Source of the DNA: Deltaproteobacteria bacterium
GTDB lineage: Bacteria > Desulfobacterota > DSM-4660 > Desulfatiglandales > Desulfatiglandaceae
DNA: 64,000 nucleotides
Assembly: GCA_021737785.1 (NCBI GenBank)
Contig: JAIPDI010000014.1
Coordinates: forward strand, 1-64,000
Direction: 5' to 3'
The notes below the pieces were generated by a model, which did no database searches, was not told the DNA's origin, and saw only the letters and a program-made list of their open reading frames with translations. The position numbers were made by a program, and so were the translations under genes. Shown piece by piece: positions 14,064 through 26,104 of the stretch (its first letter is position 1; every line of letters starts with the position of its first letter).

Positions 14064-15362
14064 CTACATTTCTTCGTCCAGATCGATCTCGTCCCTTTCG
14101 TACTGGGCGTCTCTCAGCTCATTGGCCTTCTGGATCTCTTCCTCGGTCCACGGTTCGATGATCAGGGAATCCGCCACCAGTTCCCAAAGATACTTGGTCT
14201 CGATTCCAAGACCATATTCTTTGGTAAGCGCCTTCATAATCTGGTCCCGGCAGTTGTGACAGGGGGCGATGACCATCTTGGCCCCGGTGTCCATGATCTG
14301 TTTGGCCTTGACCCGGCCGTAGTATATCCTCTCAGCATCATAGGGCATAGCCCAGGCCCCACCCCCGGCCCCGCAGCAGAAATTGTTCATCCGGTTGGGG
14401 TGCATCTCCACGTAATTTTCACAACACTGCTGGGTGACCCACCTCGGTTCTTCGAAAAAGGCCTCTCCAAAGGCCTTCATGCTTTTTCGACCGTAGTTGC
14501 AGGGATCGTGTACCGTGGTCAGCTCCTCATGGATGGATTTATCGACCTTGATCCTTCCGGTCTCGATGTATTCTTTCAGCAGCTCATGCACTGAAACCAC
14601 TCTGTATTTCTCAAAAACCTCTGGGAACCACGTTTGCAGACTAAGCCTAGTCGCATAGTAGGCGTGGCCTCACTCGGGCAGGAGTAGCGTCTTGCACTCC
14701 AATTCCTCCAGATGTTTGACAATCCTGCCGGTGATTTCCCTCATGGACTCATCATCGCCGGAAAAAAGGCCCCAGTTGACCCCTTCCCAATTCGTCGAGG
14801 TGGTGGTCCAGCTCTCCCTGGCGGCGTAGAAGATGCGCCACCAGAACTTCATGTCATCGGGTTCCCCAAAAGGTTCTTTGGAATTGACGGTCACCAGTAT
14901 ATTGGCACCCTTCTGATCCACCGGGGCATAGAAACCGGGGAATCCTTCGTCCTCAGACATCTCCTTGGACAAATCGGCCAGCAGAAAGAGGAAATCGTCT
15001 TTGGGAATCCCGAGATTGTTCCCCCTCTCCAGGCACATGACCACGCCCTTGTGGATCGGTCCGGGGACCTTGTCCCGCTCTCTGAGGGTCCTTGCGCGGC
15101 GCATCATCTTCAGGATCTCCACGCCCTGGGGACAGGCATATTCGCAGCGGCCGCACAGGGTGCAGATCCACGGGAACCGTGAATCGATCAGCTCCTGGTC
15201 GAGACCCAGCGCCGCCATGCGAACAGCCTTCCTCGGGTCCATGCCGTCCACGCCGGTTACGGGACAGCCTCCCGCGCAGGTGCCGCAGGCGAAGCAGACG
15301 TCGGCCCATTCCGGGGCAACCCGCAGCTTGCTCTCTTTACGATTGATGGTTAGCGGTTCCAT
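14064..15362 (-). CDS. HdrD-like Fe-S/CCG-domain oxidoreductase with selenocysteine (in-frame TGA)
   Basis: Read through one TGA, this is a 432-residue protein. Two 4Fe-4S motifs lie at Cys23/26/29/33 and Cys67/70/73/77, followed by a C-terminal CCG domain: Cys288, Cys329-Cys330, and Cys368/Cys371. The TGA is codon 231, in LLPE-U-GHAY; HdrD/DsrK-type relatives have Cys at this position (ECGHA), so it is read as selenocysteine. The 23 codons between the TGA and the next possible start (GTG 14600) are open and family-like, and a SECIS-like hairpin lies at 14635-14655. Start ATG 15362 follows ggaggag. No membrane segment is seen. Role inferred: electron transfer partner of the divergent acyl-CoA dehydrogenase. 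The gene would be miscalled as two ORFs (14670-15362 and 14064-14600). Confidence 0.9.
14635..14655 (-). promoter_or_regulatory. Candidate bacterial SECIS hairpin (HdrD-like gene)
   Basis: On the minus strand TGC-GACTA-[GGCT]-TAGTC-T-GCA folds as an 8-bp stem with one bulged U and a GG-containing loop. The loop begins after 22 nt from the TGA, within the usual spacing for bacterial SECIS elements. Confidence 0.75.
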
Positions 15363-15727
15363 TCATTAACCTCCTCCGTTTATCTTCGAATCCATAGGTA
15401 AGTTTCGATCCCCGTCTTTGTAAGCCGTTATTAAATAAATGTCAATGAGTAAAATCAAAAAAAGGCCATCCCCATTCTTCCTCCGACTTTCCGTTCCCTT
15501 TACGGCCCCACCTTCTTTTTCGCACCCTCTCACCTTCTCACCCTCTCATGCCCTTCCCCTCCGCCCTCCCCACTGAACGGTCTGCCATATAGTTAAAATG
15601 TAGCTACAATGTGAATAAAGTTGTTGCCATTCAGGGTCTCATGCGATATATATTATGGCTTTAGCGTTTTCAGTTGGTATCCTGTTGAGATGAATGTCAT
15701 TTTCATAAATTGAAGGAGGTTACACCG
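15363..15727. promoter_or_regulatory. Divergent intergenic region between the HdrD-like and acyl-CoA dehydrogenase genes
   Basis: A 365-bp gap that must carry both divergent promoters. Visible are a pyrimidine-rich stretch (15476-15580), the 10-bp palindrome TGTAGCTACA at 15599-15608 in an A/T-rich setting, and the aggaggt ribosome binding site (15714-15720) of the dehydrogenase. No ORF and no clear -35/-10 pair could be fixed. Confidence 0.5.
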
Positions 15728-16891
15728 ATGGAATTTGGCTTGAGTGAAGAGCTGCAGATGCTCCGCGATATGGCGCGCGATTTTGCCGCTGAAAAGATCG
15801 CGCCCCACGCGGATGAATGGGATGAGGCCCACTATTACCCCTATGAGGAAGTGATCAAACCGATGGGCGAGCTGGGATTTTTCGGCACCGTCATCCCGGA
15901 GCAATACGGCGGAAATGAAATGGGCTGGCTGGCGGCCATGATCCTCACCGAAGAGATGGCCAAGGCATCCAGCTCCGTAAGGGTGCAGATCAATATGCAG
16001 GCCCTTGGCTGCGCCTTTACCATTTTCAGGTACGGAACGGACGAACTGAAAGAAAGATATATTCCCAAGCTGGTGACCGCTGAATACGTGGGCGGATTCG
16101 GCATCACCGAACCCAATGCCGGTTCGGATGTCATGGCCCTGAAGTCCACGGCCCAGGACAAGGGGGATCACTGGCTTTTGAACGGCTCCAAGACCTGGAT
16201 ATCCAACGCCAGCGCAGCGGACGTCATTATCTACTATGCCTACACGGACAGGGAGGCCAGGGGAAAGGGGCTTTCCGCCTTTGTGGTGGAGCCCAAGAAT
16301 TTCAACGGGGTGACGACCACCGACTTGGACAAGCTGGGCACCCGGTCCACGCCCACCGGGGAGATCTATCTCGAAGACACAAAGGTGCCCAAGGAAAATA
16401 TCCTGGGAAAGCCCGGGGACGGGTCCAAAATCGTCTTCGGTTCCCTGAACCAGTCACGGCTTTCGGCCGCGGCCGGGGGCGTCGGTCTTGCCCAGGCGTG
16501 CCTCGACACGGTGACCGCCTACTGCCAGGAGAGGGAACAGTTCGGGCAATCCATCGGCAAGTTCCAGATGAACCAGGACATGATCGCCCAGGTGGCCTCC
16601 GAAATCGAGGCGGCGCGGCTGATGGTGTACAAGGCGGCATGGCAAAAGGATCAGGGCAATCTGGGAAACACCCTGGAGGTGGCCCATGCCAAGTATCTGG
16701 CGGGTGAGATCGCGGCCAAGGCCACCCAGATGGCCATGCGTATCATGGGCGCCTACGGCTATTCCACGGAATACCCGGTGGCCAGATTCTACCGGGACGC
16801 GCCCCCTTACTACATGGTGGAGGGTTCCGCCAATATCTGCAAGTGGATTATCGCCCTGGACCAGTTGGGCATCCGAAAGGCCAACCGGTAG
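15728..16891 (+). CDS. Acyl-CoA dehydrogenase, probably glutaryl-CoA type
   Basis: A 387-residue FAD-dependent acyl-CoA dehydrogenase. Motifs seen are GGFGITEPNAGSD, the KTWISNASAADV segment at the flavin, EREQFGQSIGKFQMNQ, and a C-terminal YYMVEGSANICKW whose Glu365 sits at the usual catalytic-base position. The neighbouring glutaconyl-CoA decarboxylase gene suggests glutaryl-CoA as substrate, oxidised to glutaconyl-CoA without decarboxylation as in some sulfate reducers; this is an inference from context. Start ATG 15728 has aggaggt 7 nt upstream; an in-frame TTG at 15710 is less likely. Confidence 0.9.
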   Translation: MEFGLSEELQMLRDMARDFAAEKIAPHADEWDEAHYYPYEEVIKPMGELGFFGTVIPEQYGGNEMGWLAAMILTEEMAKASSSVRVQINMQALGCAFTIFRYGTDELKERYIPKLVTAEYVGGFGITEPNAGSDVMALKSTAQDKGDHWLLNGSKTWISNASAADVIIYYAYTDREARGKGLSAFVVEPKNFNGVTTTDLDKLGTRSTPTGEIYLEDTKVPKENILGKPGDGSKIVFGSLNQSRLSAAAGGVGLAQACLDTVTAYCQEREQFGQSIGKFQMNQDMIAQVASEIEAARLMVYKAAWQKDQGNLGNTLEVAHAKYLAGEIAAKATQMAMRIMGAYGYSTEYPVARFYRDAPPYYMVEGSANICKWIIALDQLGIRKANR

Positions 16892-17000
16892 GGAAATAGA
16901 GATTCAGGGATTGAGGAATTGAGGAATTCCGGAATTGGCCATTGCACTATAAGAACTTTAGTCACTTCGCTCACTTTAGGCACTTCCCGGATTTACCCGG
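16892..17000. repeat. Short dispersed repeats between acyl-CoA dehydrogenase and gcdA
   Basis: Direct reiterations of gattcaggg/ttgaggaa units (about 16901-16937) are followed by tttagtcacttcgctcac and tttaggcacttcccgg (about 16959-16991). The same two motifs recur elsewhere in the window: the first at 44119-44176 and 51309-51360, the second near 41300-41335. Confidence 0.6.
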
Positions 17001-17015
17001 GTATTGGAGGAATAG

Positions 17016-18749
17016 ATGAGACCCTATTTTGAAAAGATGACACCTTTGGGGAAACCCCTTACAGATAAACAGAAGACCGATTCCGAGGAAAATGTCCTTG
17101 AAATCAAAAAGGTGGAAGAGGCGGTAGGCGAGGCCGTGGAGGCGGTGAAAAACGCCGGAATTCCGGCCGAAATCATAAAGAAACGCGGCCAGCTGACCGT
17201 GTGGGAGCGGATCGAATATCTCATCGATCCCGGGACCTGGTGCCCGCTCCATACCCTGTATAACCCGCAGTTTAACGAGGAGGGCACCACCGGCGTTATT
17301 GACGGACTGGCCAAGATCAACGGCAAATGGGCCGTGGTCATCGGTTTTGACAACAAGGTGATGGCAGGGGCCTGGATCAGCGGACAGGCCGACAATCAAC
17401 TGCGGGTGACGGACATGGCCAAACGGCTTCATGTCCCCCTGGTGTGGATCGTCAACTGCAGCGGCGTTAAACTGCCGGAGCAGCAGGAGGTTTATGCAAA
17501 CCGGCGGGGAAACGGCACCACCTTCTTCCGTCATGCCGAACTGGAAAAGGTGGGGGTGCCGGTACTGGCCGGCATCTATGGCACCAACCCGGCCGGCGGC
17601 GGGTATCAGGGGATCAGCCCCACCATTCTTCTGGCGCATAAGGATGCCAATATCGCCGTGGGCGGCGGCGGGATCGTGAGCGGGATGAGTCCCAAGGGAT
17701 CTTTTGATGAAGACGGGGCCGAGCAGTTGATCGAGGCGACACGCCATTTCAAAGAGGTGCCGCCGGGCAGCGTTCCCATCCACTACAATGAGACCGGCTT
17801 CTTCAAAGAGGTCTATGATACGGAAGAAGGGGTCCTGGATGCCCTGAAAAAATACATGGACATGGTCCCGGCCTACCACCCCGACTTCTTCCGGGTGGCC
17901 GAGCCCAAGGCGCCCAAATTCTCAGGGGAGGATATCAATCATATCGTCGCCTTCAACCAGAAGCGGAGCTACAACTTCGATGAGATGCTTGCCCGTCTCT
18001 TTGACAACAGCGAGCACATGGAGTTCAGGCCCGGCTACGGTCCCGAGGTCTATACCGGCCTGGCCAAGATCAATGGGTTCCTTATGGGATTTATCGGGAA
18101 CCGTCAGGGATTCTTAGGGGCCAAATATCCTGAATACGCCCCCTATCCGGGTGTCGGCGGCAAGCTGTACCGCCAGGGTCTCATCAAGATGAATGAATTC
18201 GTCACCCTCTGCGGCCGGGACCGGGTCCCGATCGTATGGTTTCAGGATACTTCGGGCATCGATGTGGGGGATATTGCGGAGAAGGCGGAACTCCTGGGTT
18301 TGGGCCAGTCCCTCATATACTCCATCGAGCAGACAGATGTGCCCCAGATATGTATCATTTTGAGGAAGGGGACCGCGGCGGCCCACTATATTATGGGAGG
18401 CCCCACGGCCAATAATCATAACGCCTTTACATTAGGAACCCCCACCACGGAGATCTACGTCATGCACGGCGAGACCGCGGCCGCGGCCTCATTCGCCAGG
18501 CGGCTGGTCAAGGAAAAGGATGCGGGACGGCCTCTCGGGCCGGTCATCGACAAGATGAACGCCCTGGCAAAGGAGTATTACGACAACTCACGGCCCATCT
18601 ACTGCGCCAAGAGGGGGTATGTGGACGAGATCGTGTCTTTTCCGCGAATAAGGGACTACCTGGTGGTTTTTGCAGGCTGCGCCTATCAGAATCCGACATC
18701 CATCTGCCCCCATCACCACATGATGCTCCCGAGGATTATCAAGGGATAA
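17016..18749 (+). CDS. gcdA: Glutaconyl-CoA decarboxylase alpha subunit (carboxyltransferase)
   Basis: A 577-residue carboxyltransferase with two crotonase-type halves, very like the GcdA subunit of the sodium-pumping glutaconyl-CoA decarboxylase in length and sequence (CSGVKLPEQQEVYANRRG, YGTNPAGGGYQGISPT, AVGGGGIVSGMSPKG). GcdA moves the carboxyl group from glutaconyl-CoA to biotin, leaving crotonyl-CoA. The membrane and biotin-carrier subunits are not in the window, so they must be encoded elsewhere or the enzyme works with other partners. Start ATG 17016 follows ggagg with good spacing. Confidence 0.93.
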   Translation: MRPYFEKMTPLGKPLTDKQKTDSEENVLEIKKVEEAVGEAVEAVKNAGIPAEIIKKRGQLTVWERIEYLIDPGTWCPLHTLYNPQFNEEGTTGVIDGLAKINGKWAVVIGFDNKVMAGAWISGQADNQLRVTDMAKRLHVPLVWIVNCSGVKLPEQQEVYANRRGNGTTFFRHAELEKVGVPVLAGIYGTNPAGGGYQGISPTILLAHKDANIAVGGGGIVSGMSPKGSFDEDGAEQLIEATRHFKEVPPGSVPIHYNETGFFKEVYDTEEGVLDALKKYMDMVPAYHPDFFRVAEPKAPKFSGEDINHIVAFNQKRSYNFDEMLARLFDNSEHMEFRPGYGPEVYTGLAKINGFLMGFIGNRQGFLGAKYPEYAPYPGVGGKLYRQGLIKMNEFVTLCGRDRVPIVWFQDTSGIDVGDIAEKAELLGLGQSLIYSIEQTDVPQICIILRKGTAAAHYIMGGPTANNHNAFTLGTPTTEIYVMHGETAAAASFARRLVKEKDAGRPLGPVIDKMNALAKEYYDNSRPIYCAKRGYVDEIVSFPRIRDYLVVFAGCAYQNPTSICPHHHMMLPRIIKG

Positions 18750-18775
18750 TGGGGAGTTAGCCGTAACTATCAGAT

Positions 18776-18810
18776 GGGGCCTTCAGGCAGGGAAATCGGC
18801 CTGGGGCCCC
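18776..18810 (+). terminator. GC-rich hairpin after gcdA, possible terminator
   Basis: GGGGCC and CAGGC pair with GCCTG and GGCCCC, giving an 11-bp stem with small bulges 26 nt after the gcdA stop. No U-run follows, so this is a weak intrinsic terminator at best; it could instead stabilise the mRNA 3' end. Confidence 0.45.
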
Positions 18811-18965
18811 TCCCTTCACTCAGGGTGGCCTGTCCATCTATTCCCGGGCTTTTTCCAACTTCTTCCTTCTCCCCATGATCTTATCGCGGGTGATCTCGGC
18901 CCCTCCCGTCAAGTTTCCTGGAATCTTCTCTCAATCAGGCAAAGCGCATTGAAACATGCTCGACG

Positions 18966-19112
18966 GCAATTCTTATTTTGGAAAATTTCCCTTGTGGGAG
19001 CGGCTTTCCCCGCTAAAGACGGGATCTGCGACCAGTCCCGCCTACGGGCGGGATGGCAAGATGCCACTCACACAGCATTTCGACTCCAGGTCCACTTCAT
19101 AATGAGTATTGC
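18966..19112 (+). repeat. MITE/REP-like element, copy 2
   Basis: A roughly 147-bp element inverse to the copy at 12251-12394. Imperfect terminal inverted repeats (gcaattcttatttt / ataatgagtattgc) match at about 11 of 14 positions. The core shares cttgtgggagcgg, cgctaaagacgggatctg and ggcaagatgccac with copy 1. It ends 20 bp before a TTGACA box upstream of arsR. Confidence 0.75.
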
Positions 19113-19131
19113 TGCAGGCTGGAATTTTCTG

Positions 19132-19160
19132 TTGACACAGTCGGGATTATTACATAAACA
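19132..19160 (+). promoter_or_regulatory. Possible sigma-70-like promoter of the arsR module
   Basis: A consensus TTGACA at 19132-19137 is followed after 17 bp by TAAACA (19155-19160) in A/T-rich sequence that includes tacataaacatacattta. The -10 match is weak. An ArsR operator might overlap here, but no clean inverted repeat was found. Confidence 0.35.
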
Positions 19161-19198
19161 TACATTTATATCGTGCTTTATCGTGTGAGGAATCCGAG

Positions 19199-19504
19199 GT
19201 GGAACCTGAGCAACTTCAGCAAGTGGCCTTTTTGGCCAAAAGTCTTTCGGACGTAAATCGTCTCCGGATACTCCATTGTATCAGCGGCGAACAGAAGTCG
19301 GTCTCGGCCATTGTGGAAGAACTGGGCCTGTCCCAGCCGCTGGTATCACACCATCTGAAGGAACTCAAACACTCCCTCCTGGTCACTGTTGAGCGGCAGG
19401 GTCCGTTTATTTATTACGAGCTGGCGGATCAACGAATCTTACAAATCGTCGAGATGTTGATTCAGGTGGCAAACGATCTGATATCCGGCCGAAAGATGTT
19501 TTGA
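19199..19504 (+). CDS. ArsR-family winged-helix regulator
   Basis: A 101-residue ArsR/SmtB-type repressor. The winged helix-turn-helix runs from about residue 15 to 85 (LSDVNRLRILHCI, then VEELGLSQPLVSHHLKELKHSLLVTVERQG). The usual metal-site motif ELCVCDL is absent and the only Cys is in ILHCIS, so a metal sensor of the classic type is unlikely. The inducer is unknown. Start is GTG 19199 (weak RBS gaggaatccgag). It heads a module with the unknown protein (24 nt downstream) and the DsrE-like selenoprotein. Confidence 0.9.
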   Translation: MEPEQLQQVAFLAKSLSDVNRLRILHCISGEQKSVSAIVEELGLSQPLVSHHLKELKHSLLVTVERQGPFIYYELADQRILQIVEMLIQVANDLISGRKMF

Positions 19505-19528
19505 ACAAACGGAGGTGAACCAAACGAC

Positions 19529-20020
19529 ATGGTGGAAATCCGAAAAATACTGGCTGATATGGCTCCGGAAGAGGCCCTTTCAGAAATCAGCGCCATCCTG
19601 CAGGAACTATTTTCCAGTCTGGATGATGAAACAAAAATGGATTTTTTGTCCAAACTTTTTGGGGCGCCCGGCACGGATAAGGTTTCCAGCATGGTTCACT
19701 TGTGACTGGCTGAATGCATGGGCGAAGGTGTCGACCCGACGGAGATGTGTCAAAGCCTGGTGGATAAGGTGGCCCGGTCCACACAACTCACCGCCATCGC
19801 AGAGCCGGAGCTGCTGGTCCTTTTCGAGGACTGGCTGGAAGAGCTGGAGGCCGAGGCTATCCTGGCCGTCAATGACGGTCATGCCCGGGATACCACGGAA
19901 CTGGCCCGTAGACTGAAGGTCTCTTCTAAGGGGGCCAATTTCCTGCTTTCAAAACTCAGTAGAGAGGGAAAGATAGATGTGCTGCATGCACGATCGGACA
20001 CAGGTGGCAAATCCATATGA
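19529..20020 (+). CDS. Unknown protein with in-frame TGA, candidate selenoprotein
   Basis: ATG 19529 has a strong ggaggtga 10 nt upstream. The frame runs 58 codons to a TGA at 19703-19705 and continues open in the same frame to the TGA at 20018-20020, giving 163 residues if the first TGA is selenocysteine (MVHL-U-LAEC, a U-x3-C arrangement at 59-63). The N-terminal half is helical and acidic; the C-terminal part (TTELARRLKVSSKGANFLLSK) resembles a winged-helix segment. I do not recognise the family. A SECIS-like hairpin lies at 19720-19737. The alternative is two short genes, the second starting at ATG 19718, but that start has no visible ribosome binding site. Confidence 0.55.
19720..19737 (+). 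promoter_or_regulatory. Candidate bacterial SECIS hairpin (unknown protein)
   Basis: GGG-CGA-[AGGTG]-TCG-A-CCC forms two 3-bp stems separated by a single bulged A, with GGU in the loop. The loop starts after 20 nt from the TGA at 19703. The 3-bp / bulge / 3-bp shape recalls the E. coli fdhF element, with the bulge on the opposite side. Confidence 0.5.
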
Positions 20021-20168
20021 AAGGCCTAAACCCCATGTCTCTCCTGTGTCCTCTGTGGGAGACCCGACTTCTCACGAGATCTTCAATGTCAGGGAGCGGC
20101 GGGCGCGATTCCGGCAGAATAGCATGCCATCCTGATGAAACGTCATATAAAGAGGAGGAACAAATAGT

Positions 20169-20480
20169 ATGAAAGTCCTGTTTATCATCACGACCGACGA
20201 TGGAGAAACCATCTACAATGCCATGCGGCTGGCCAATGTGGGCGTTGAAAAGGGCGACGAGGTGAGTGTGTTCATGCTGGGCAAAGGGGTAACCTACGAG
20301 AAGAGCGGGAGTGAGGAATTCAATGTCATGGGTCAGATGGAGAAATTCGAAGGCGATTTCTATGTCTGAGGGGTCTGCATGAAATCCCACGGTCTTGTGG
20401 GATCCGCCAGTTGCCCCATCGGTTGGATGGATGATCTTTATGAGCTCTCAATGGAGGCCGATAAGGTACTCACCTTTTAA
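20169..20480 (+). CDS. DsrE-family selenoprotein (in-frame TGA)
   Basis: Reading through TGA 20367-20369 gives a complete 103-residue DsrE-like protein. The N-terminal half (MKVLFIITTDDGETIYNAMR) is the Rossmann-like DsrE start. The C-terminal half after the TGA (GVCMKSHGLVGSASCP, then MDDLYELSMEADKVLTF) matches the conserved end of the family, where the motif is normally CxxC-K-S-R-G. Here it is Sec67-x-x-Cys70. The conserved Cys in this position carries persulfide or thiol-redox chemistry in DsrE/TusD relatives, so Sec is likely catalytic. Start ATG 20169 has gaggagg upstream. Ordinary gene calling would stop at 66 residues. Confidence 0.93.
20384..20403 (+). promoter_or_regulatory. Bacterial SECIS hairpin in dsrE-like gene
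   Basis: ATCCCAC-[GGTCTT]-GTGGGAT is a perfect 7-bp stem with a six-base loop containing GGUC, as in well-studied formate dehydrogenase elements. The loop begins after 21 nt from the TGA. Confidence 0.85.
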
Positions 20481-20848
20481 CTCTGGGCTTCCAGATTTCA
20501 GACCTGCCGGTTTCAGGAAAAACACAAACAACAGCCCCCACCGAAACCTTGACTCTGGATCCCGCTGAGCGGGACCCCGGCCTTGGTTGCGGCCGTTAGC
20601 CCTTGTTAAAGAGCTTCTTCACAGACAGGAAAAAGGCCTGAAGGTCAATGTGGGCACGGGCCGCATGAGGCGAAAAGTATATCCCGGAAAGAAGTCTTAC
20701 TCTACCCAGATCATGACTCCGCTTACCAAATGAATTGACCGTTGGCCTTACCTTCTCGCTGACATAAGCAAAGCACTGAAACCCTGAACCTGTAACCCGG
20801 CCATTATTGGGTTGCGGGCATAGCTCGTTTTGGGTAAGATATGTGGTT
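20481..20848. other. 368-bp intergenic region before the AMP-ligase gene
   Basis: No convincing gene. A short hairpin-forming palindrome (atcccgctgagcgggacc, about 20558-20575) is present, similar in style to other repeats here. A minus-strand reading frame (20596-20994) crosses it but runs antisense into the ligase gene and has no recognisable content. Confidence 0.5.
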
Positions 20849-22351
20849 ATGAAACGTGAAGGATCAATAGAGAGTTCAAGACCTTTCCCCGGCAATCTCA
20901 GCATGTTGCTCGATGTATGCAGGGAACAAAACCCCGAAAGAGACGGGATCGGTACGCCTGAGAAGATGCTGACCTTTGCCGAATACCACGACAAGGTCTG
21001 TCGCCTGGCCTGTGGACTGAGAAGGTTCGGGGTGCAACGAAAGGACCGGGTGATCCTTTCTTCCCTTGCCCCGTTGGGCTATGCCCTCGTGTCTCTGGCG
21101 GTCTTCCGGCTTGGCGCGGTCCTCGTCCCGGTGAACCCGCGAATGGGGCCGTATGAACTGGCCCACATCCTCTCTGAGACGCGACCCCGGCTTGTGGTGT
21201 GCAATGCCGTCATGATTCCGACCATCCTGAAGGCCTGCGAACTTGTCAGGGAAGCCCCCTCCCCTTCCCTCATTACACTTGATGAAAAGGTCCCCTCTAC
21301 CCCGGTTGTGGAAGAGATTGCCCTTTCCGAGCCCCTGTGCCGTTGCGAAAAAATGGCAGCGGACGAGACTGCCATGATTGTATTCACCGCCGCCATGGAG
21401 GGATATCCATTAGGGGCGCAACTGACCCACGGGTCTCTTTATTACGACAGTATTGCCTTTGCCCGACAATCCTTCCGGGAAAGCGGCGCCGACTCAGAGA
21501 TCCTGTTCTCCCTCCTCCCCCTGTTTCATTCTTATGGGTTCACCAACGGCTTTCTGGTCCCCCTGGTCGGCGCTGTCACCTGTCTCTTATTGGGGACTTC
21601 CATTCGGGGAAGGACGGTGGTGGACCTCATGGCCCGCTACAGACCCACCCAGATCATCTCGGTGCCCGCCATATTTCACGGATTGCTGAAGCCCTTATCC
21701 GAGAAACCCGGGTTCCTGGCCGGGATTCGAAATCTGACCAGCGGCGGCATAGGGATTTCGAAAAAACTCCTGGATCTGTACGAAGAGAAACTCGGATTGA
21801 TCATCAGCGAGGGCTATGGTCTGACAGAGGCCTCCCCGGTGGTGACCTGGAACGGCCTCGACAGGCCGCCCAAGTTCGGAACCGTGGGTCCTCCCCTCTC
21901 CTGCTGTCAGGTGAAGATCGTGTCCGATGGCGGGGAGGAAGTCCCCCCGGGAGATGAGGGGGAAGTTTTGGTGAAGGGCTCAAATCTCTTTTCCGGATAT
22001 CTCGGCCGGCCGGAGCATACCCAAAAGTCCTTTGTGGACGGCTGGTTCAAAACCGGCGACCTTGGGCGTCTCGATGACGAAAGTTATCTGACCATAACCG
22101 GCCTCAAAAAGGATATGATCAATGTCTTCGGGTTGAAGGCATATCCGAGGGAGATCGAAAGACTCCTTGGAAACCATCCGGATATTGCGTCCGCCCGCAT
22201 CCGGGGGGAATGGCATCATCGGTATGGCGAGATCGTAGCCGGCGACATCCATTTGAAACCTGGACGGACCATGTCCGAGAGGTCTTTCTTCGACTGGTGC
22301 CGGCACCATATATCTCCATACAAGATCCCCCGCACCATCCGGATTCATTAG
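20849..22351 (+). CDS. Acyl-AMP ligase-like protein with degenerate core motif and no C-terminal lysine motif
   Basis: A 500-residue member of the ANL (acyl/aryl-CoA ligase) superfamily. Recognisable parts are GYGLTEASPV (A5), FKTGDLGRLDDESYLTITGLKKDMI (A7/A8) and the hinge region. Two features are unusual: the phosphate loop, normally TSGTTGxPKG, reads TAAMEGYPLGAQ at about residues 175-190, and the protein ends at YKIPRTIRIH, before the A10 motif that carries the catalytic lysine. The downstream 60 bp encode no A10 in any frame. It may have lost adenylation activity or have a different role. Start ATG 20849 (MKREGS); the frame opens at 20807. Confidence 0.8.
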   Translation: MKREGSIESSRPFPGNLSMLLDVCREQNPERDGIGTPEKMLTFAEYHDKVCRLACGLRRFGVQRKDRVILSSLAPLGYALVSLAVFRLGAVLVPVNPRMGPYELAHILSETRPRLVVCNAVMIPTILKACELVREAPSPSLITLDEKVPSTPVVEEIALSEPLCRCEKMAADETAMIVFTAAMEGYPLGAQLTHGSLYYDSIAFARQSFRESGADSEILFSLLPLFHSYGFTNGFLVPLVGAVTCLLLGTSIRGRTVVDLMARYRPTQIISVPAIFHGLLKPLSEKPGFLAGIRNLTSGGIGISKKLLDLYEEKLGLIISEGYGLTEASPVVTWNGLDRPPKFGTVGPPLSCCQVKIVSDGGEEVPPGDEGEVLVKGSNLFSGYLGRPEHTQKSFVDGWFKTGDLGRLDDESYLTITGLKKDMINVFGLKAYPREIERLLGNHPDIASARIRGEWHHRYGEIVAGDIHLKPGRTMSERSFFDWCRHHISPYKIPRTIRIH

Positions 22352-22501
22352 CACGTGCCCCAGTGGCTGCAGAGCTGAGGCCGACGGCGCTTAGGACCTG
22401 TGCAGCTAGACCTCACCATTGCGAACACTCGGATAATATGGGGAGCGGGGGTCTTTTTTTTCCCCACGGCCTGACCTCACAGGTCGGGATCAAAACCATG
22501 A

Positions 22502-24289
22502 ATGGCCGACGTTGAATTTCAGCGCGCAACAGATGAAAACACCATGAAAATCAAAAGCCTTCGACAACGCATTGGGCTCCTTCTCCTCCTGCCGGTGGGC
22601 CTGCTCCTGTTCCTTATCGGGTTTTTCGGGTTTATGTACATGAAAGAAACCCTTTTAGACCAGTGGAGAGACGCCTCCATCGCCAAACTTGAGCGGGCGG
22701 CCCATCAGATCGATATGAGGCTGGATCGGGTCATCAACTGGATTCAGATGTTCCATGAGGCATCTGAAAGCCGTGGCGGGCCGATGATTGAGGATTGGGT
22801 TCTCACCCAGCTCAGGGACATGAAAGGCGTGGCCCAGGTTGAATTGACATGGAATGAGGCGGGCAATGCCTTGCAGACCATGCCCATGCACGGGGGCAGA
22901 CGGGCCATGGGTGGGTCCGGAGTGATGGGTTCTCAAGGGGCCAGGGGTCTGGAGGTGACGTCTCCCCGCTACGATGCCGCTATCGGGGAGGACACGGTGG
23001 ATCTCATATCCGGCATCAAGGACGAGTCCGGAAACGATCTGGGCAGACTGACGATTTCCCTGAACTTTGATTATCTCCTTGCGGGAATCAAAGGCCTGGC
23101 CTGGTGGCAGACCGATCAGGCATGCCTCATAGAAAACTCCGGCAGATACATCGCTCACACCGAGGCCCTGATGGAAGGACGAATGGAGCTTGGGGGAACC
23201 CAGGACCCCTTTGAGACGGCCTTGCTCAGGGAAATTCAGAAAAACCCTTATGGTACGTTTCTGGGGCGCGGACACCCGCCGGATCGGGTGGCCGGGTATT
23301 ACAATCTCCAGAATGCGCCCTGGATCATTGTCCTGTTTGCCCCGGGCAAGGAGGTCCTGTCGCCCATCGTCCGGCTCCGCGCCTATTTTTTTGTGGGAGT
23401 GCTCTGTACCGTATGCGTCATCCTGTTACTGATCCACTGGGTGGTGGGAAGGATGGTCCATTCGTTTGCCGAGATCTCCGATGCCTCCACAAGGGTGGCC
23501 AGGGGGGATTATGGACAACCCATCCCCGTACACAGCGCAGACGAGATTGGACAATTGACCCGAAGCTTCAACACCATGGTGGAAGGCTTGAAAGAAAGGG
23601 ATTTTGTTGCCAACACATTCGGGCGGTACGTGGATCAGGAGATCGCCCAAAAGCTGATGAAAATCCCGGCCGCGTCAAGGCTGGGCGGCGACAAACGGGA
23701 AGTGGCCATCCTTATGTCGGATATCCGGGGATTTACACCCATGGCCGAAGCCATGAGGCCCGATAGCATCATCCATTTTCTGAACCGGTATTTTTCTCGG
23801 TTGATTCAGGTCATTCAGAAACACAATGGAATCATTGTGGATTTCTTCGGGGACAGCATCCTGGTCTTTTTTGATCCCCTGGAAGGGCCTGTTGAACCGG
23901 TGATCCGCAAGAGTGTGACATGTGCATTTGACATGCAGGATGCCATGAGAAGGTTTAATACGGAGATGAAACAGGAAGGATTCCCCGAAGTTCTCACGGG
24001 TATTGGGATTAATGCGGGAGAAGTGGTGGTGGGCAACGTGGGCTCGGAAACCCGGGCCAAGTACGGGATCGTGGGCTCGGCCGTGAATATGACCCAGAGG
24101 ATCCAATCAAAGGCCGAAGGAGGAGAAGTGGTGGTTTCTGAATCGGTCTACCAGCGTATTTCCGGAGAGATGGACATAAAGACCTCTCGATCGTTTACCG
24201 TGCCCCTGAAAGGGATAAAGGCCCACACCCGGCTTTATGCGGTGGACAATAAAGCGCCTGTAAAGGAGGGCATGACCGACACCTGCTGA
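22502..24289 (+). CDS. Membrane class III adenylate/guanylate cyclase with HAMP domain
   Basis: A 595-residue signalling protein: a transmembrane segment (about 25-45), an extracytoplasmic Cache-like sensor region, a second transmembrane segment (about 290-310), a HAMP linker (ISDASTRVARGDYGQPI), and a C-terminal class III cyclase catalytic domain from about 395. Metal-binding aspartates are visible in ILMSDIRGFTPMAE and VDFFGDSILVFFD, and VGSAVNMTQRIQ is the usual late motif. The product (cAMP or cGMP) cannot be fixed. The start may instead be ATG 22544 (MKIKSLRQR). Confidence 0.88.
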   Translation: MADVEFQRATDENTMKIKSLRQRIGLLLLLPVGLLLFLIGFFGFMYMKETLLDQWRDASIAKLERAAHQIDMRLDRVINWIQMFHEASESRGGPMIEDWVLTQLRDMKGVAQVELTWNEAGNALQTMPMHGGRRAMGGSGVMGSQGARGLEVTSPRYDAAIGEDTVDLISGIKDESGNDLGRLTISLNFDYLLAGIKGLAWWQTDQACLIENSGRYIAHTEALMEGRMELGGTQDPFETALLREIQKNPYGTFLGRGHPPDRVAGYYNLQNAPWIIVLFAPGKEVLSPIVRLRAYFFVGVLCTVCVILLLIHWVVGRMVHSFAEISDASTRVARGDYGQPIPVHSADEIGQLTRSFNTMVEGLKERDFVANTFGRYVDQEIAQKLMKIPAASRLGGDKREVAILMSDIRGFTPMAEAMRPDSIIHFLNRYFSRLIQVIQKHNGIIVDFFGDSILVFFDPLEGPVEPVIRKSVTCAFDMQDAMRRFNTEMKQEGFPEVLTGIGINAGEVVVGNVGSETRAKYGIVGSAVNMTQRIQSKAEGGEVVVSESVYQRISGEMDIKTSRSFTVPLKGIKAHTRLYAVDNKAPVKEGMTDTC

Positions 24290-24390
24290 AACCCGCATCG
24301 CCCCGATGCGGCAAAAGGTTCCGCTCTATTGATTGACCTGATCGGTGATATAGCGTATAATTTATTATTGCCCATGAGAGGGAATGCATC

Positions 24391-24687
24391 ATGCGATTGT
24401 TCATTTGTATGGCTTTCTGTGCGTGCATGACGGCATGCGCACCGCCCATAGACGTGAAGATCCCCGAGGACCACCCGGCCAATCCGCAGGCGAGTCTCTC
24501 CCCTCCAGGACCGGCAGCGGATTATATCTATCATCTTCCCTCTCCCCCTCCCTTGATCCAATCGACTGATACCACGGACCGGATGCCTACGGGAAAAAAA
24601 GACCCCTCAGACAGCTCCGAAGGCCCATCTCATCCCCACGAAGAGGACATGAAGCAGAAAAAGCGCGGAGCACCCCATGAACATTAG
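24391..24687 (+). CDS. Small proline-rich lipoprotein
   Basis: A 98-residue protein with a short signal peptide and lipobox (MTAC, Cys at about 16), followed by a proline-, serine- and charge-rich tail with no domain. It overlaps the following TolC-like gene by 11 nt, so it is likely the first gene of that operon. No function can be assigned; the location suggests a small envelope accessory protein for the metal-handling genes downstream. Confidence 0.6.
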   Translation: MRLFICMAFCACMTACAPPIDVKIPEDHPANPQASLSPPGPAADYIYHLPSPPPLIQSTDTTDRMPTGKKDPSDSSEGPSHPHEEDMKQKKRGAPHEH

Positions 24688-26104
24688 GACGTCAATCCTC
24701 ATAGGCATAGTGTCCGCGGCCATGGTGTTTTTATTCAGCGGGTGCGCCACCACTGATCCGAAAAAACCCTTTGCCGGATTAAAAGAGGAGATCAAGGCCC
24801 GCACCGGTACGGAAATCGAGTGGCAACGGTCCCTCGAGGCCAGGAGGCATGCGTCTCAACGAATCCGGTCCATGTTAAGAGATGACCTCACCCTGGAAGA
24901 GGCCATCGCCATCGGTCTGGCGAACAACCGCCGCATACAGGGCCTCTACCAGGAGCTTGGCGTGGCCCAGGCAGGGGTGGTGCAATCACAACTGCTGGAC
25001 AATCCCCATGTGGGCTTTGCGTATCTGGGGAGTTCTTCCAACCTCTACAAGCTGGAGCTGGAGGCCGTCACCAACATCCTCAGCCTGTTTCTCATCCCCC
25101 TTCGGCAGGCGCTTGCCGAGGCCCAACTGGCGCGCGCCCATCACCGGATTGCAGGCCTGGTCCTGGCGCACCTCTTTGACATCCGAAGGGCTTATGTGAT
25201 GGTACAGGCCCATCAGCAGGCCTACCGTCTCCTCGAGCGCGTCCTCTTGTCCTCAGAGGCGGCACATGAAATGGCAGAACGGTTGCGGGATGCCGGCAAC
25301 ATGACACGTCTGGAACTCCTCTCCCGAAGATCCCTGGCGGAAGAGGACCGGCTTGCCTTGTCCTCGGCCTCCCTTGCTGTTTTCGAAAGCCGTGAGCGAT
25401 TGAATCGCCTGATGGGTCTCTGGGGAGAAGACATTGCCTGGACAGTGAAGGCGGATCTGCCCGCGGTCCCGATGGATTATCCGGACCTTCAAGAAGTGGA
25501 AAAGCGGGCCGTGGAGGCCAGCCTGGATATGGCCCTTGCAAAGAGCCGATTGACGGCCGGCGCACGGGAGCTGGGAATCACCAATGTGACCTCCATCCTT
25601 CCTGAATTTGAGATGGGGGCTGCGTTTGAACGGGAAGAAGACGGCATGTGGTTCGGAGGACCGGCCTTTGCCCTCCAATTGCCGATCTTTGACCCGGGCC
25701 ATGCCAAACGGAGCAAGGCCCGGGCCATTGTGGAGCGACACTGGGAGGAATTTACCGCATTATCCGTGGAGGTGCGCTCGCAGGCCCGCGAGGCCTTCCG
25801 CCGGCTGGAAGTGGCCCGGGAACAGGCCCTTTATTATGAAAAATCCTTCTTGCCCCTTAGACAAGCCATTACCCAACAGGCCCAACGCCGCTACAACGGC
25901 ATGTTTCTGGGGGTGTTTGACCTCCTCATGATCAAGCGGATGGAGATCCGGGCATCATTGGGCTATATTGACGCACTGAAAACCTACTGGATGGCCCAAA
26001 GTGACATGGAGGAGCTATTGGCCGGGAAGCTCCCTCCGCATTCGACGGACATGAGGATGATCCTCCCTGTGTCAGGCGGATCCATGGGCCAAGGGGGTCA
26101 CTAA
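24677..26104 (+). CDS. TolC-family outer membrane lipoprotein
   Basis: A 475-residue outer membrane efflux-type protein. The signal peptide ends at a lipobox (LFSGC, Cys near 23). The rest shows the repeated helical pattern of the OEP/TolC fold, with LTLEEAIAIGLANNRRIQ starting the first repeat and LPIFDPGHAKRSKA in the second half. Its stop overlaps the ATG of the multicopper oxidase gene (TAATG), so the two are coupled. No inner-membrane pump gene is adjacent on this strand. A copper-export link is inferred from context. Confidence 0.88.
   Translation: MNIRTSILIGIVSAAMVFLFSGCATTDPKKPFAGLKEEIKARTGTEIEWQRSLEARRHASQRIRSMLRDDLTLEEAIAIGLANNRRIQGLYQELGVAQAGVVQSQLLDNPHVGFAYLGSSSNLYKLELEAVTNILSLFLIPLRQALAEAQLARAHHRIAGLVLAHLFDIRRAYVMVQAHQQAYRLLERVLLSSEAAHEMAERLRDAGNMTRLELLSRRSLAEEDRLALSSASLAVFESRERLNRLMGLWGEDIAWTVKADLPAVPMDYPDLQEVEKRAVEASLDMALAKSRLTAGARELGITNVTSILPEFEMGAAFEREEDGMWFGGPAFALQLPIFDPGHAKRSKARAIVERHWEEFTALSVEVRSQAREAFRRLEVAREQALYYEKSFLPLRQAITQQAQRRYNGMFLGVFDLLMIKRMEIRASLGYIDALKTYWMAQSDMEELLAGKLPPHSTDMRMILPVSGGSMGQGGH

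What the first reader, a model, noticed from the sequence alone, without database searches (positions are those of the whole stretch)
19529..20020. Unknown protein with an in-frame TGA and SECIS-like hairpin between arsR and the DsrE selenoprotein
A gene with a strong RBS meets a TGA after 58 codons, and the same frame continues open for 104 more codons. The hairpin at 19720-19737 has a GGU-containing loop starting 20 nt after the TGA, the same spacing as the two clearer selenoproteins nearby. The U-x3-C pair would be a possible redox site. I do not recognise the family, so it may be an undescribed selenoprotein.
Basis: partly seen in the sequence, partly recalled or inferred. Interest (0 to 1): 0.8.

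Follow-up and report, generated by a model that had tools for sequence, protein, structure and literature searches.

The report
TsoA selenoprotein beside a DsrE selenoprotein
The interrupted gene is a genuine selenocysteine-containing protein, but it belongs to a family already catalogued as TsoA; the less expected part is that here, and in about twenty related loci, its usual large partner protein is missing and a DsrE-type sulfur-handling protein, usually itself a selenoprotein, sits beside it.

Summary
TGA 19703-19705 is codon 59 of a 163-residue protein. Of 113 non-redundant family members 112 carry TGA at exactly this codon, none TAA, TAG or Cys. Codons between the TGA and the downstream ATG evolve as coding DNA (pN 0.000, pS 0.36). 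The hairpin shows extreme synonymous constraint and compensatory pair changes and fits the published bacterial SECIS model. The genome has SelB and tRNA-Sec. 'Undescribed' is wrong: the protein matches NCBIfam NF045695, 'LULAXC motif selenoprotein TsoA' (214.5 bits, cut-off 170); the upstream 'arsR' is TsoR. What may be new: this genome lacks recognisable TsoB and TsoC, and a Sec-containing DsrE protein follows TsoA. Across 113 TsoA loci, TsoB (60) and DsrE (22) never occur together and have swapped repeatedly. The C-terminal half of TsoA also resembles Met-rich small proteins beside metal regulators. Function is inferred only: a selenol/thiol protein handling sulfane sulfur, or soft metal(loid)s, with an exchangeable sulfur-carrier partner. 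The founding paper (Haft & Tolstoy 2025) was not held, so priority on the DsrE variant is unverified.

The parts
19199..19504 (+). tsoR: ArsR/SmtB-type regulator, 24 nt upstream of tsoA
   Evidence: NF045707 TsoR 155.9 bits, cut-off 115; found directly upstream of tsoA in nearly every homologous locus that reaches that far
19511..19515 (+). GGAGG ribosome-binding site of tsoA
   Evidence: sequence
19529..20020 (+). tsoA: 163-residue selenoprotein, Sec at residue 59
   Evidence: NF045695 TsoA 214.5 bits over all 144 model positions, cut-off 170; conservation of TGA and flanks
19703..19705 (+). Sec-UGA codon 59 (LULAEC motif)
   Evidence: TGA in 112/113 non-redundant homologues
19719..19738 (+). 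bacterial SECIS hairpin, apical loop AGGUG at 19726-19730
   Evidence: synonymous-codon freeze and compensatory pairs; fold -8.3 kcal/mol for UGA plus hairpin
19715..19717 (+). Cys63 codon (U-x3-C)
   Evidence: Cys in 113/113
19748..19750 (+). Cys74 codon (MC motif)
   Evidence: Cys in 108/113
19829..20017 (+). C-terminal winged-helix-like domain of TsoA (about residues 101-163)
   Evidence: weak Pfam HTH_24 match; predicted model aligned to winged helices, best Z 7.7 over 64-65 residues, rmsd 3.2-3.8
20169..20480 (+). dsrE-like selenoprotein (TGA 20367-20369, motif UGVC), the partner gene of this variant
   Evidence: PF02635 DsrE 2.6e-10; TGA at the same position in most linked homologues and Cys in two distant ones

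Best explanation
19529-20020 is tsoA, a selenoprotein gene of the known TsoA family; UGA 19703 is read as selenocysteine by SelB and tRNA-Sec through the SECIS hairpin 19719-19738. It forms a compact tsoR-tsoA-dsrE(Sec) cassette, a variant of the 'three-selenoprotein operon' in which the rhodanese/DsbD selenoprotein TsoB and TsoC are absent. Shown: the UGA is translated and constrained (by comparative evidence), the SECIS is under selection, family membership, and the mutually exclusive partner genes. Inferred: Sec59 and Cys63, one helical turn apart, with Cys74 on the next helix, form a selenol/thiol site on a helical protein with a C-terminal winged-helix domain. That site exchanges sulfane sulfur or electrons with a sulfur-carrier partner (TsoB rhodanese domain or DsrE), under control of TsoR.
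For: Family: NF045695 and NF045707 above cut-off. TGA at codon 59: 79/80 loci, 112/113 non-redundant, including divergent members. Codons 60-63: pS 0.36, pN 0.000; pN/pS 0.27 before and 0.21 after the TGA. SECIS: Gly65 GGC 84/84 (background 0.34), Glu66 GAA 106/106 (0.54), Gly67 GGT 107/113 (0.14), Val68 GTC 102/109 (0.31), Pro70 CCA 65/113 (0.07); pairs 19722-19735, 19723-19733 and 19724-19732 exceed all 2000 shuffles. Machinery: SelB 397 bits, over cut-off; tRNA-Sec with anticodon TCA. Partner swap: TsoB at 60 loci, DsrE at 22, both at 0, with 13 changes on the tree; whole genomes: none of 14 with TsoA-linked DsrE has TsoB over cut-off, against 21 of the other 30. Some loci carry instead an SQR-like flavoprotein. 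Rhodanese, DsrE and SQR are sulfane-sulfur enzymes by established knowledge.
Against: No Cys homologue at residue 59, so no Cys/Sec pair. No peptide or Se-labelling data. The sulfur chemistry rests on neighbours alone; TsoR has no conserved Cys, unlike the cysteine-based persulfide sensors of its superfamily. Relatives of the C-terminal half without this Sec are Met-rich and in one case sit in a heavy-metal cluster, which points to metal binding instead. Structure model confidence is moderate (pLDDT 76, pTM 0.40).
Confidence: 0.6

Rival explanations
1. TsoA is a soft metal(loid)-binding selenoprotein: Sec59, Cys63 and Cys74 ligate As(III), Hg(II), Cu(I) or similar, and TsoA acts as chaperone, scavenger or co-sensor with the ArsR-type TsoR; DsrE or TsoB re-reduce it or act on the metal(loid).
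For: Relatives of the C-terminal half with no TsoA-type Sec have Met-rich, Cys-containing N-terminal parts such as MGMGMMSEMMQNMM and MPEMC. Two lie directly behind an ArsR-type regulator, one of which matches the TsoR model at 80 bits, below its cut-off. One lies between cadR and a GDCCVxC (seleno)protein beside a heavy-metal P-type ATPase on Thauera plasmid pTX1. TsoR is itself in the ArsR/SmtB metalloregulator class.
Against: In other places the same relatives sit beside XdhC or a DGC-domain gene, so the metal context is not uniform; no metal efflux gene appeared among the neighbour clusters of TsoA that I identified; the partners TsoB, DsrE and SQR-like are sulfur enzymes.
Confidence: 0.3
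2. Two separate genes: a 58-residue protein ending at a true stop, then a second ORF from the ATG at 19718.
For: An ATG lies 12 nt after the TGA and an open frame of 100 codons follows; Met64 is common in the family.
Against: Stop is TGA in 112/113 and never TAA/TAG; residue 64 is Leu, Thr, Phe, Val or Ala in 22/113; codons 60-63 show amino-acid conservation with free synonymous change; the NCBIfam model spans the TGA without a break.
Confidence: 0.01
3. The TGA is a sequencing error or a decayed pseudogene, or UGA is read as another residue throughout a recoded genome.
For: One homologue (L026) has AGA at this codon.
Against: Same codon in independent genomes of many families; purifying selection on both sides; neighbouring genes in this window use TGA as stop, e.g. 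tsoR; the SECIS is conserved even in L026.
Confidence: 0.01

Closest known systems
TsoA, LULAXC motif selenoprotein (NCBIfam NF045695; Haft & Tolstoy 2025, cited in PMC13188914)
   Same: Full-length match above cut-off, LULAxC motif, Sec position, TsoR upstream
   Different: Nothing in the protein itself; gene neighbours differ
Tso three-selenoprotein operon (TsoR, TsoA, TsoB, TsoC)
   Same: tsoR-tsoA pair in the same order and spacing
   Different: No TsoB over cut-off and no TsoC in this genome; a DsrE selenoprotein takes the place behind tsoA
DsrE-like selenoprotein (PF02635, UxxC; PMC13188914 table 1)
   Same: Gene 20169-20480 has the DsrE domain and UGVC motif
   Different: Here linked to tsoA; I do not know whether that linkage has been published
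Met-rich proteins carrying a TsoA-like C-terminal domain (e.g. WP_034928677.1, Thauera plasmid pTX1)
   Same: C-terminal domain matches NF045695 at 53-64 bits, below cut-off
   Different: No Sec at the TsoA position; the N-terminal part is short and Met-rich instead of the LULAxC helix

Membership tests
TsoA (NF045695) | Score over the curated cut-off (170 bits) along the whole model | tested here: met
   214.5 bits, model positions 1-144 of 144
TsoA (NF045695) | LULAxC motif with an in-frame UGA at U | tested here: met
   LULAEC with TGA at codon 59
TsoA (NF045695) | Selenocysteine actually present in the protein | not testable with these tools
   needs mass spectrometry or 75Se labelling
[quoted passage not shown] upper stem of 4-16 bp; loop 16-37 nt after UGA; MFE at or below -7.5 (model in PMC13188914) | tested here: met
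   Loop AGGUG, six pairs with one bulge, 20 nt, -8.3 kcal/mol for UGA plus hairpin, -7.1 for the hairpin alone; conservation and covariation
Bacterial selenoprotein gene | Host has SelB and tRNA-Sec | tested here: met
Bacterial selenoprotein gene | Host has SelA and SelD | not tested
   searches kept for other questions
Bacterial selenoprotein gene | Cys-containing homologues aligned at the UGA (a usual supporting criterion, not a requirement) | tested here: not met
   No Cys form of TsoA among 113; relatives without TGA lack the segment
Tso three-selenoprotein operon | TsoR upstream of TsoA | tested here: met
   NF045707 155.9 bits, cut-off 115
Tso three-selenoprotein operon | TsoB and TsoC selenoproteins present | tested here: not met
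   Best TsoB-like is a DsbD without the rhodanese part, 555 of 805 bits; TsoC no match although the model rings in 25 of 44 relatives. The genome is rated 100% complete, yet in 96 contigs
Winged-helix DNA-binding proteins | Winged-helix fold of the C-terminal domain | tested here: inconclusive
   Z up to 7.7 over 64-65 residues; Pfam HTH matches below cut-off

The most novel reading that the evidence does not exclude
TsoR-TsoA is a two-gene core whose sulfur-handling partner is exchangeable: TsoB in most loci, a DsrE protein (mostly Sec-containing) in others, sometimes an SQR-like flavoprotein. TsoA itself shares its C-terminal half with a Met-rich, metal-associated protein family, the LULAxC selenol/thiol helix standing where those proteins have a Met-rich segment. 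No paper I could read describes either point.
Probability: 0.45. Interest if true: 0.6.

Novelty: new member of a known kind. Interest (0 to 1): 0.42.

Why it matters
It turns what looks like a truncated 58-residue protein into a member of a selenoprotein family with no known function, and gives testable constraints on that function. The never-together pattern of TsoB and DsrE suggests that TsoA's task is coupled to sulfur carriers, and the Met-rich relatives offer a form with no Sec at the TsoA position for comparison. The SECIS signal is unusually clear by comparison: synonymous sites are nearly frozen over several codons in a row.

Tried and rejected
Rfam search of 15000-25000: no match; Rfam may hold no usable model for this kind of element. 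Single-sequence folding energy does not distinguish the hairpin (z = 0.26). Foldseek against PDB: nothing at E <= 0.001; the lists are filled by the C-terminal winged-helix-like part, so the N-terminal helical part is untested. Viral contigs: no relative. Plasmids: only the C-terminal relative in Thauera. Full text of Haft & Tolstoy 2025 was not held under PMC id, DOI or PubMed id, so what they say about DsrE neighbours is unknown. Two-gene and sequencing-error readings rejected (see rivals).

Full report
Observation. The reading frame from ATG 19529 meets TGA at 19703-19705 after 58 codons and continues for 104 codons to TGA 20018. GGAGG lies 13 nt before the ATG. The upstream gene ends 24 nt before it. 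The hairpin has the pairs 19720-19737, 19721-19736, 19722-19735, 19723-19733, 19724-19732 and 19725-19731 with A19734 bulged, can be extended by 19719-19738 in most relatives, and has the loop AGGUG.

Is the UGA translated? A scan of genome contigs gave 80 homologous loci, 79 with TGA at this codon. A profile search of 395 genomes of the same phylum gave further members. After removing near copies, 112 of 113 carry TGA and one AGA; none has TAA, TAG or Cys. Pairwise identities go down to 18%. A true stop would drift among the three stop codons. The one AGA (L026) keeps the whole hairpin, and its MAG holds a second, TGA-bearing copy (L038). The scan probes included ECMGEGVD, which could favour close relatives, but the profile search did not depend on it.

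The two-gene reading fails. Codons 60-63, which a second gene starting at ATG 19718 would leave untranslated, show pS 0.36 and pN 0.000 in 416 pairs of relatives; before the TGA pN/pS is 0.27 and after it 0.21. Residue 64 is not Met in 22 of 113.

SECIS. Codons 65-70 are strongly constrained at synonymous sites: GGC 84/84, GAA 106/106, GGT 107/113, GTC 102/109, CCA 65/113, against backgrounds of 0.34, 0.54, 0.14, 0.31 and 0.07 in the same genes. Where Gly65 becomes Asp (GGC to GAC), codon 69 changes from GAC to GAT and the pair G-C becomes A-U (26 sequences, with 3 A-C mismatches and 2 G-U). Pairs 19723-19733 and 19724-19732 also show double changes. The shuffles do not remove shared ancestry, so the counts are not independent events. 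The element meets the published bacterial SECIS model; its energy is -8.3 kcal/mol with the UGA included and -7.1 for the hairpin alone. SelB and tRNA-Sec are in the genome.

What family? NCBIfam gives NF045695, LULAXC motif selenoprotein TsoA, 214.5 bits against a cut-off of 170, and the upstream gene is NF045707 TsoR. A 2026 review lists TsoA, TsoB (rhodanese/DsbD fusion), TsoC, TsoX and TsoY as predicted selenoproteins and describes the three-selenoprotein operon, citing Haft & Tolstoy 2025 (PMC13188914). So the selenoprotein is real but not undescribed.

What differs here. This genome has no TsoB over cut-off (the best match is an ordinary DsbD without the rhodanese part) and no TsoC, while the TsoC model rings in 25 of 44 relatives. 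Behind tsoA stands a DsrE-domain gene with an in-frame TGA in a UGVC motif, 20169-20480. In the nearest relative (L082) a tsoC gene lies between tsoA and dsrE. Over 113 loci, TsoB is linked in 60, DsrE in 22 (one of them, L157, labelled by hand, 2 kb upstream) and both in none; the two states change at least 13 times on the tree, though branches are weakly resolved. In whole genomes, none of 14 with linked DsrE has TsoB over cut-off, against 21 of the other 30 (hypergeometric 7e-6, ignoring shared ancestry). Flanks of some loci are short, so linkage counts are lower bounds. The linked DsrE proteins have TGA at the same position in most loci and Cys in two distant ones (L153, L149), the Cys/Sec pair that TsoA itself lacks. 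Some loci have an SQR-like flavoprotein instead.

Relatives without a TsoA-type Sec. Short proteins share only the C-terminal half; most have Met-rich N-terminal parts with one or two Cys. Two stand directly behind an ArsR-type gene, one of which matches TsoR at 80 bits, below cut-off; one stands between cadR and a GDCCVxC (seleno)protein in a heavy-metal cluster on a Thauera plasmid. They match NF045695 at 53-64 bits, below cut-off.

Structure. AlphaFold with 71 sequences gives an all-helical N-terminal part and a C-terminal winged-helix-like domain, pLDDT 76, pTM 0.40. By the predicted helices, Sec59 and Cys63 are one turn apart on helix 51-65, and Cys74 is near the start of helix 70-88; the domain arrangement is not reliable. 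The best structural matches cover only the C-terminal domain at Z 7.7, a level reached by unrelated proteins.

Mechanism. Shown by comparative evidence: translation through UGA, SECIS, family, neighbours. Inferred: TsoA carries a selenol/thiol site that exchanges sulfane sulfur or electrons with a sulfur-carrier partner. The rival is a soft metal(loid) site, favoured by the Met-rich relatives and the ArsR-type regulator. The data do not separate these cleanly; I put about 0.6 and 0.3 on them.

Noticed in passing
window 14064-15362 (-): A second selenoprotein: Fe-S oxidoreductase with in-frame TGA in a UGH motif at residue 231; related to HmcF/TmcB/DsrK below their cut-offs. PMC13188914 lists a Fe-S oxidoreductase-like selenoprotein with UGH.
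   Followed up: partly
L026 2620: The single TsoA with AGA instead of TGA, in a Desulfocapsaceae MAG that also has a TGA copy (L038); hairpin intact. Recent Sec-to-Arg change or assembly error.
   Followed up: partly
L161 5908-6306 (NZ_CP023440.1): Met-rich hypothetical protein with a TsoA-like C-terminal domain between cadR and a GDCCVxC (seleno)protein in a heavy-metal cluster of a conjugative Thauera plasmid.
   Followed up: partly
L143 668-1465, L144 690-1439: ArsR-type regulator directly followed by a Met-rich protein with a TsoA-like C-terminal domain; an XdhC or a DGC-domain gene follows.
   Followed up: partly
L153, L149: DsrE homologues near divergent tsoA genes with Cys in place of the Sec found in most other linked DsrE proteins: Cys/Sec pairs that support DsrE as a selenoprotein.
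   Followed up: partly
L056 2309-3547 and about nine similar loci: SQR-like FAD oxidoreductase near tsoA, mostly in loci that have neither TsoB nor DsrE.
   Followed up: partly
L157 (G249): A divergent tsoA with a TAG inside the matched stretch near its C-terminal end; probably just a shorter C-terminus.
   Followed up: no
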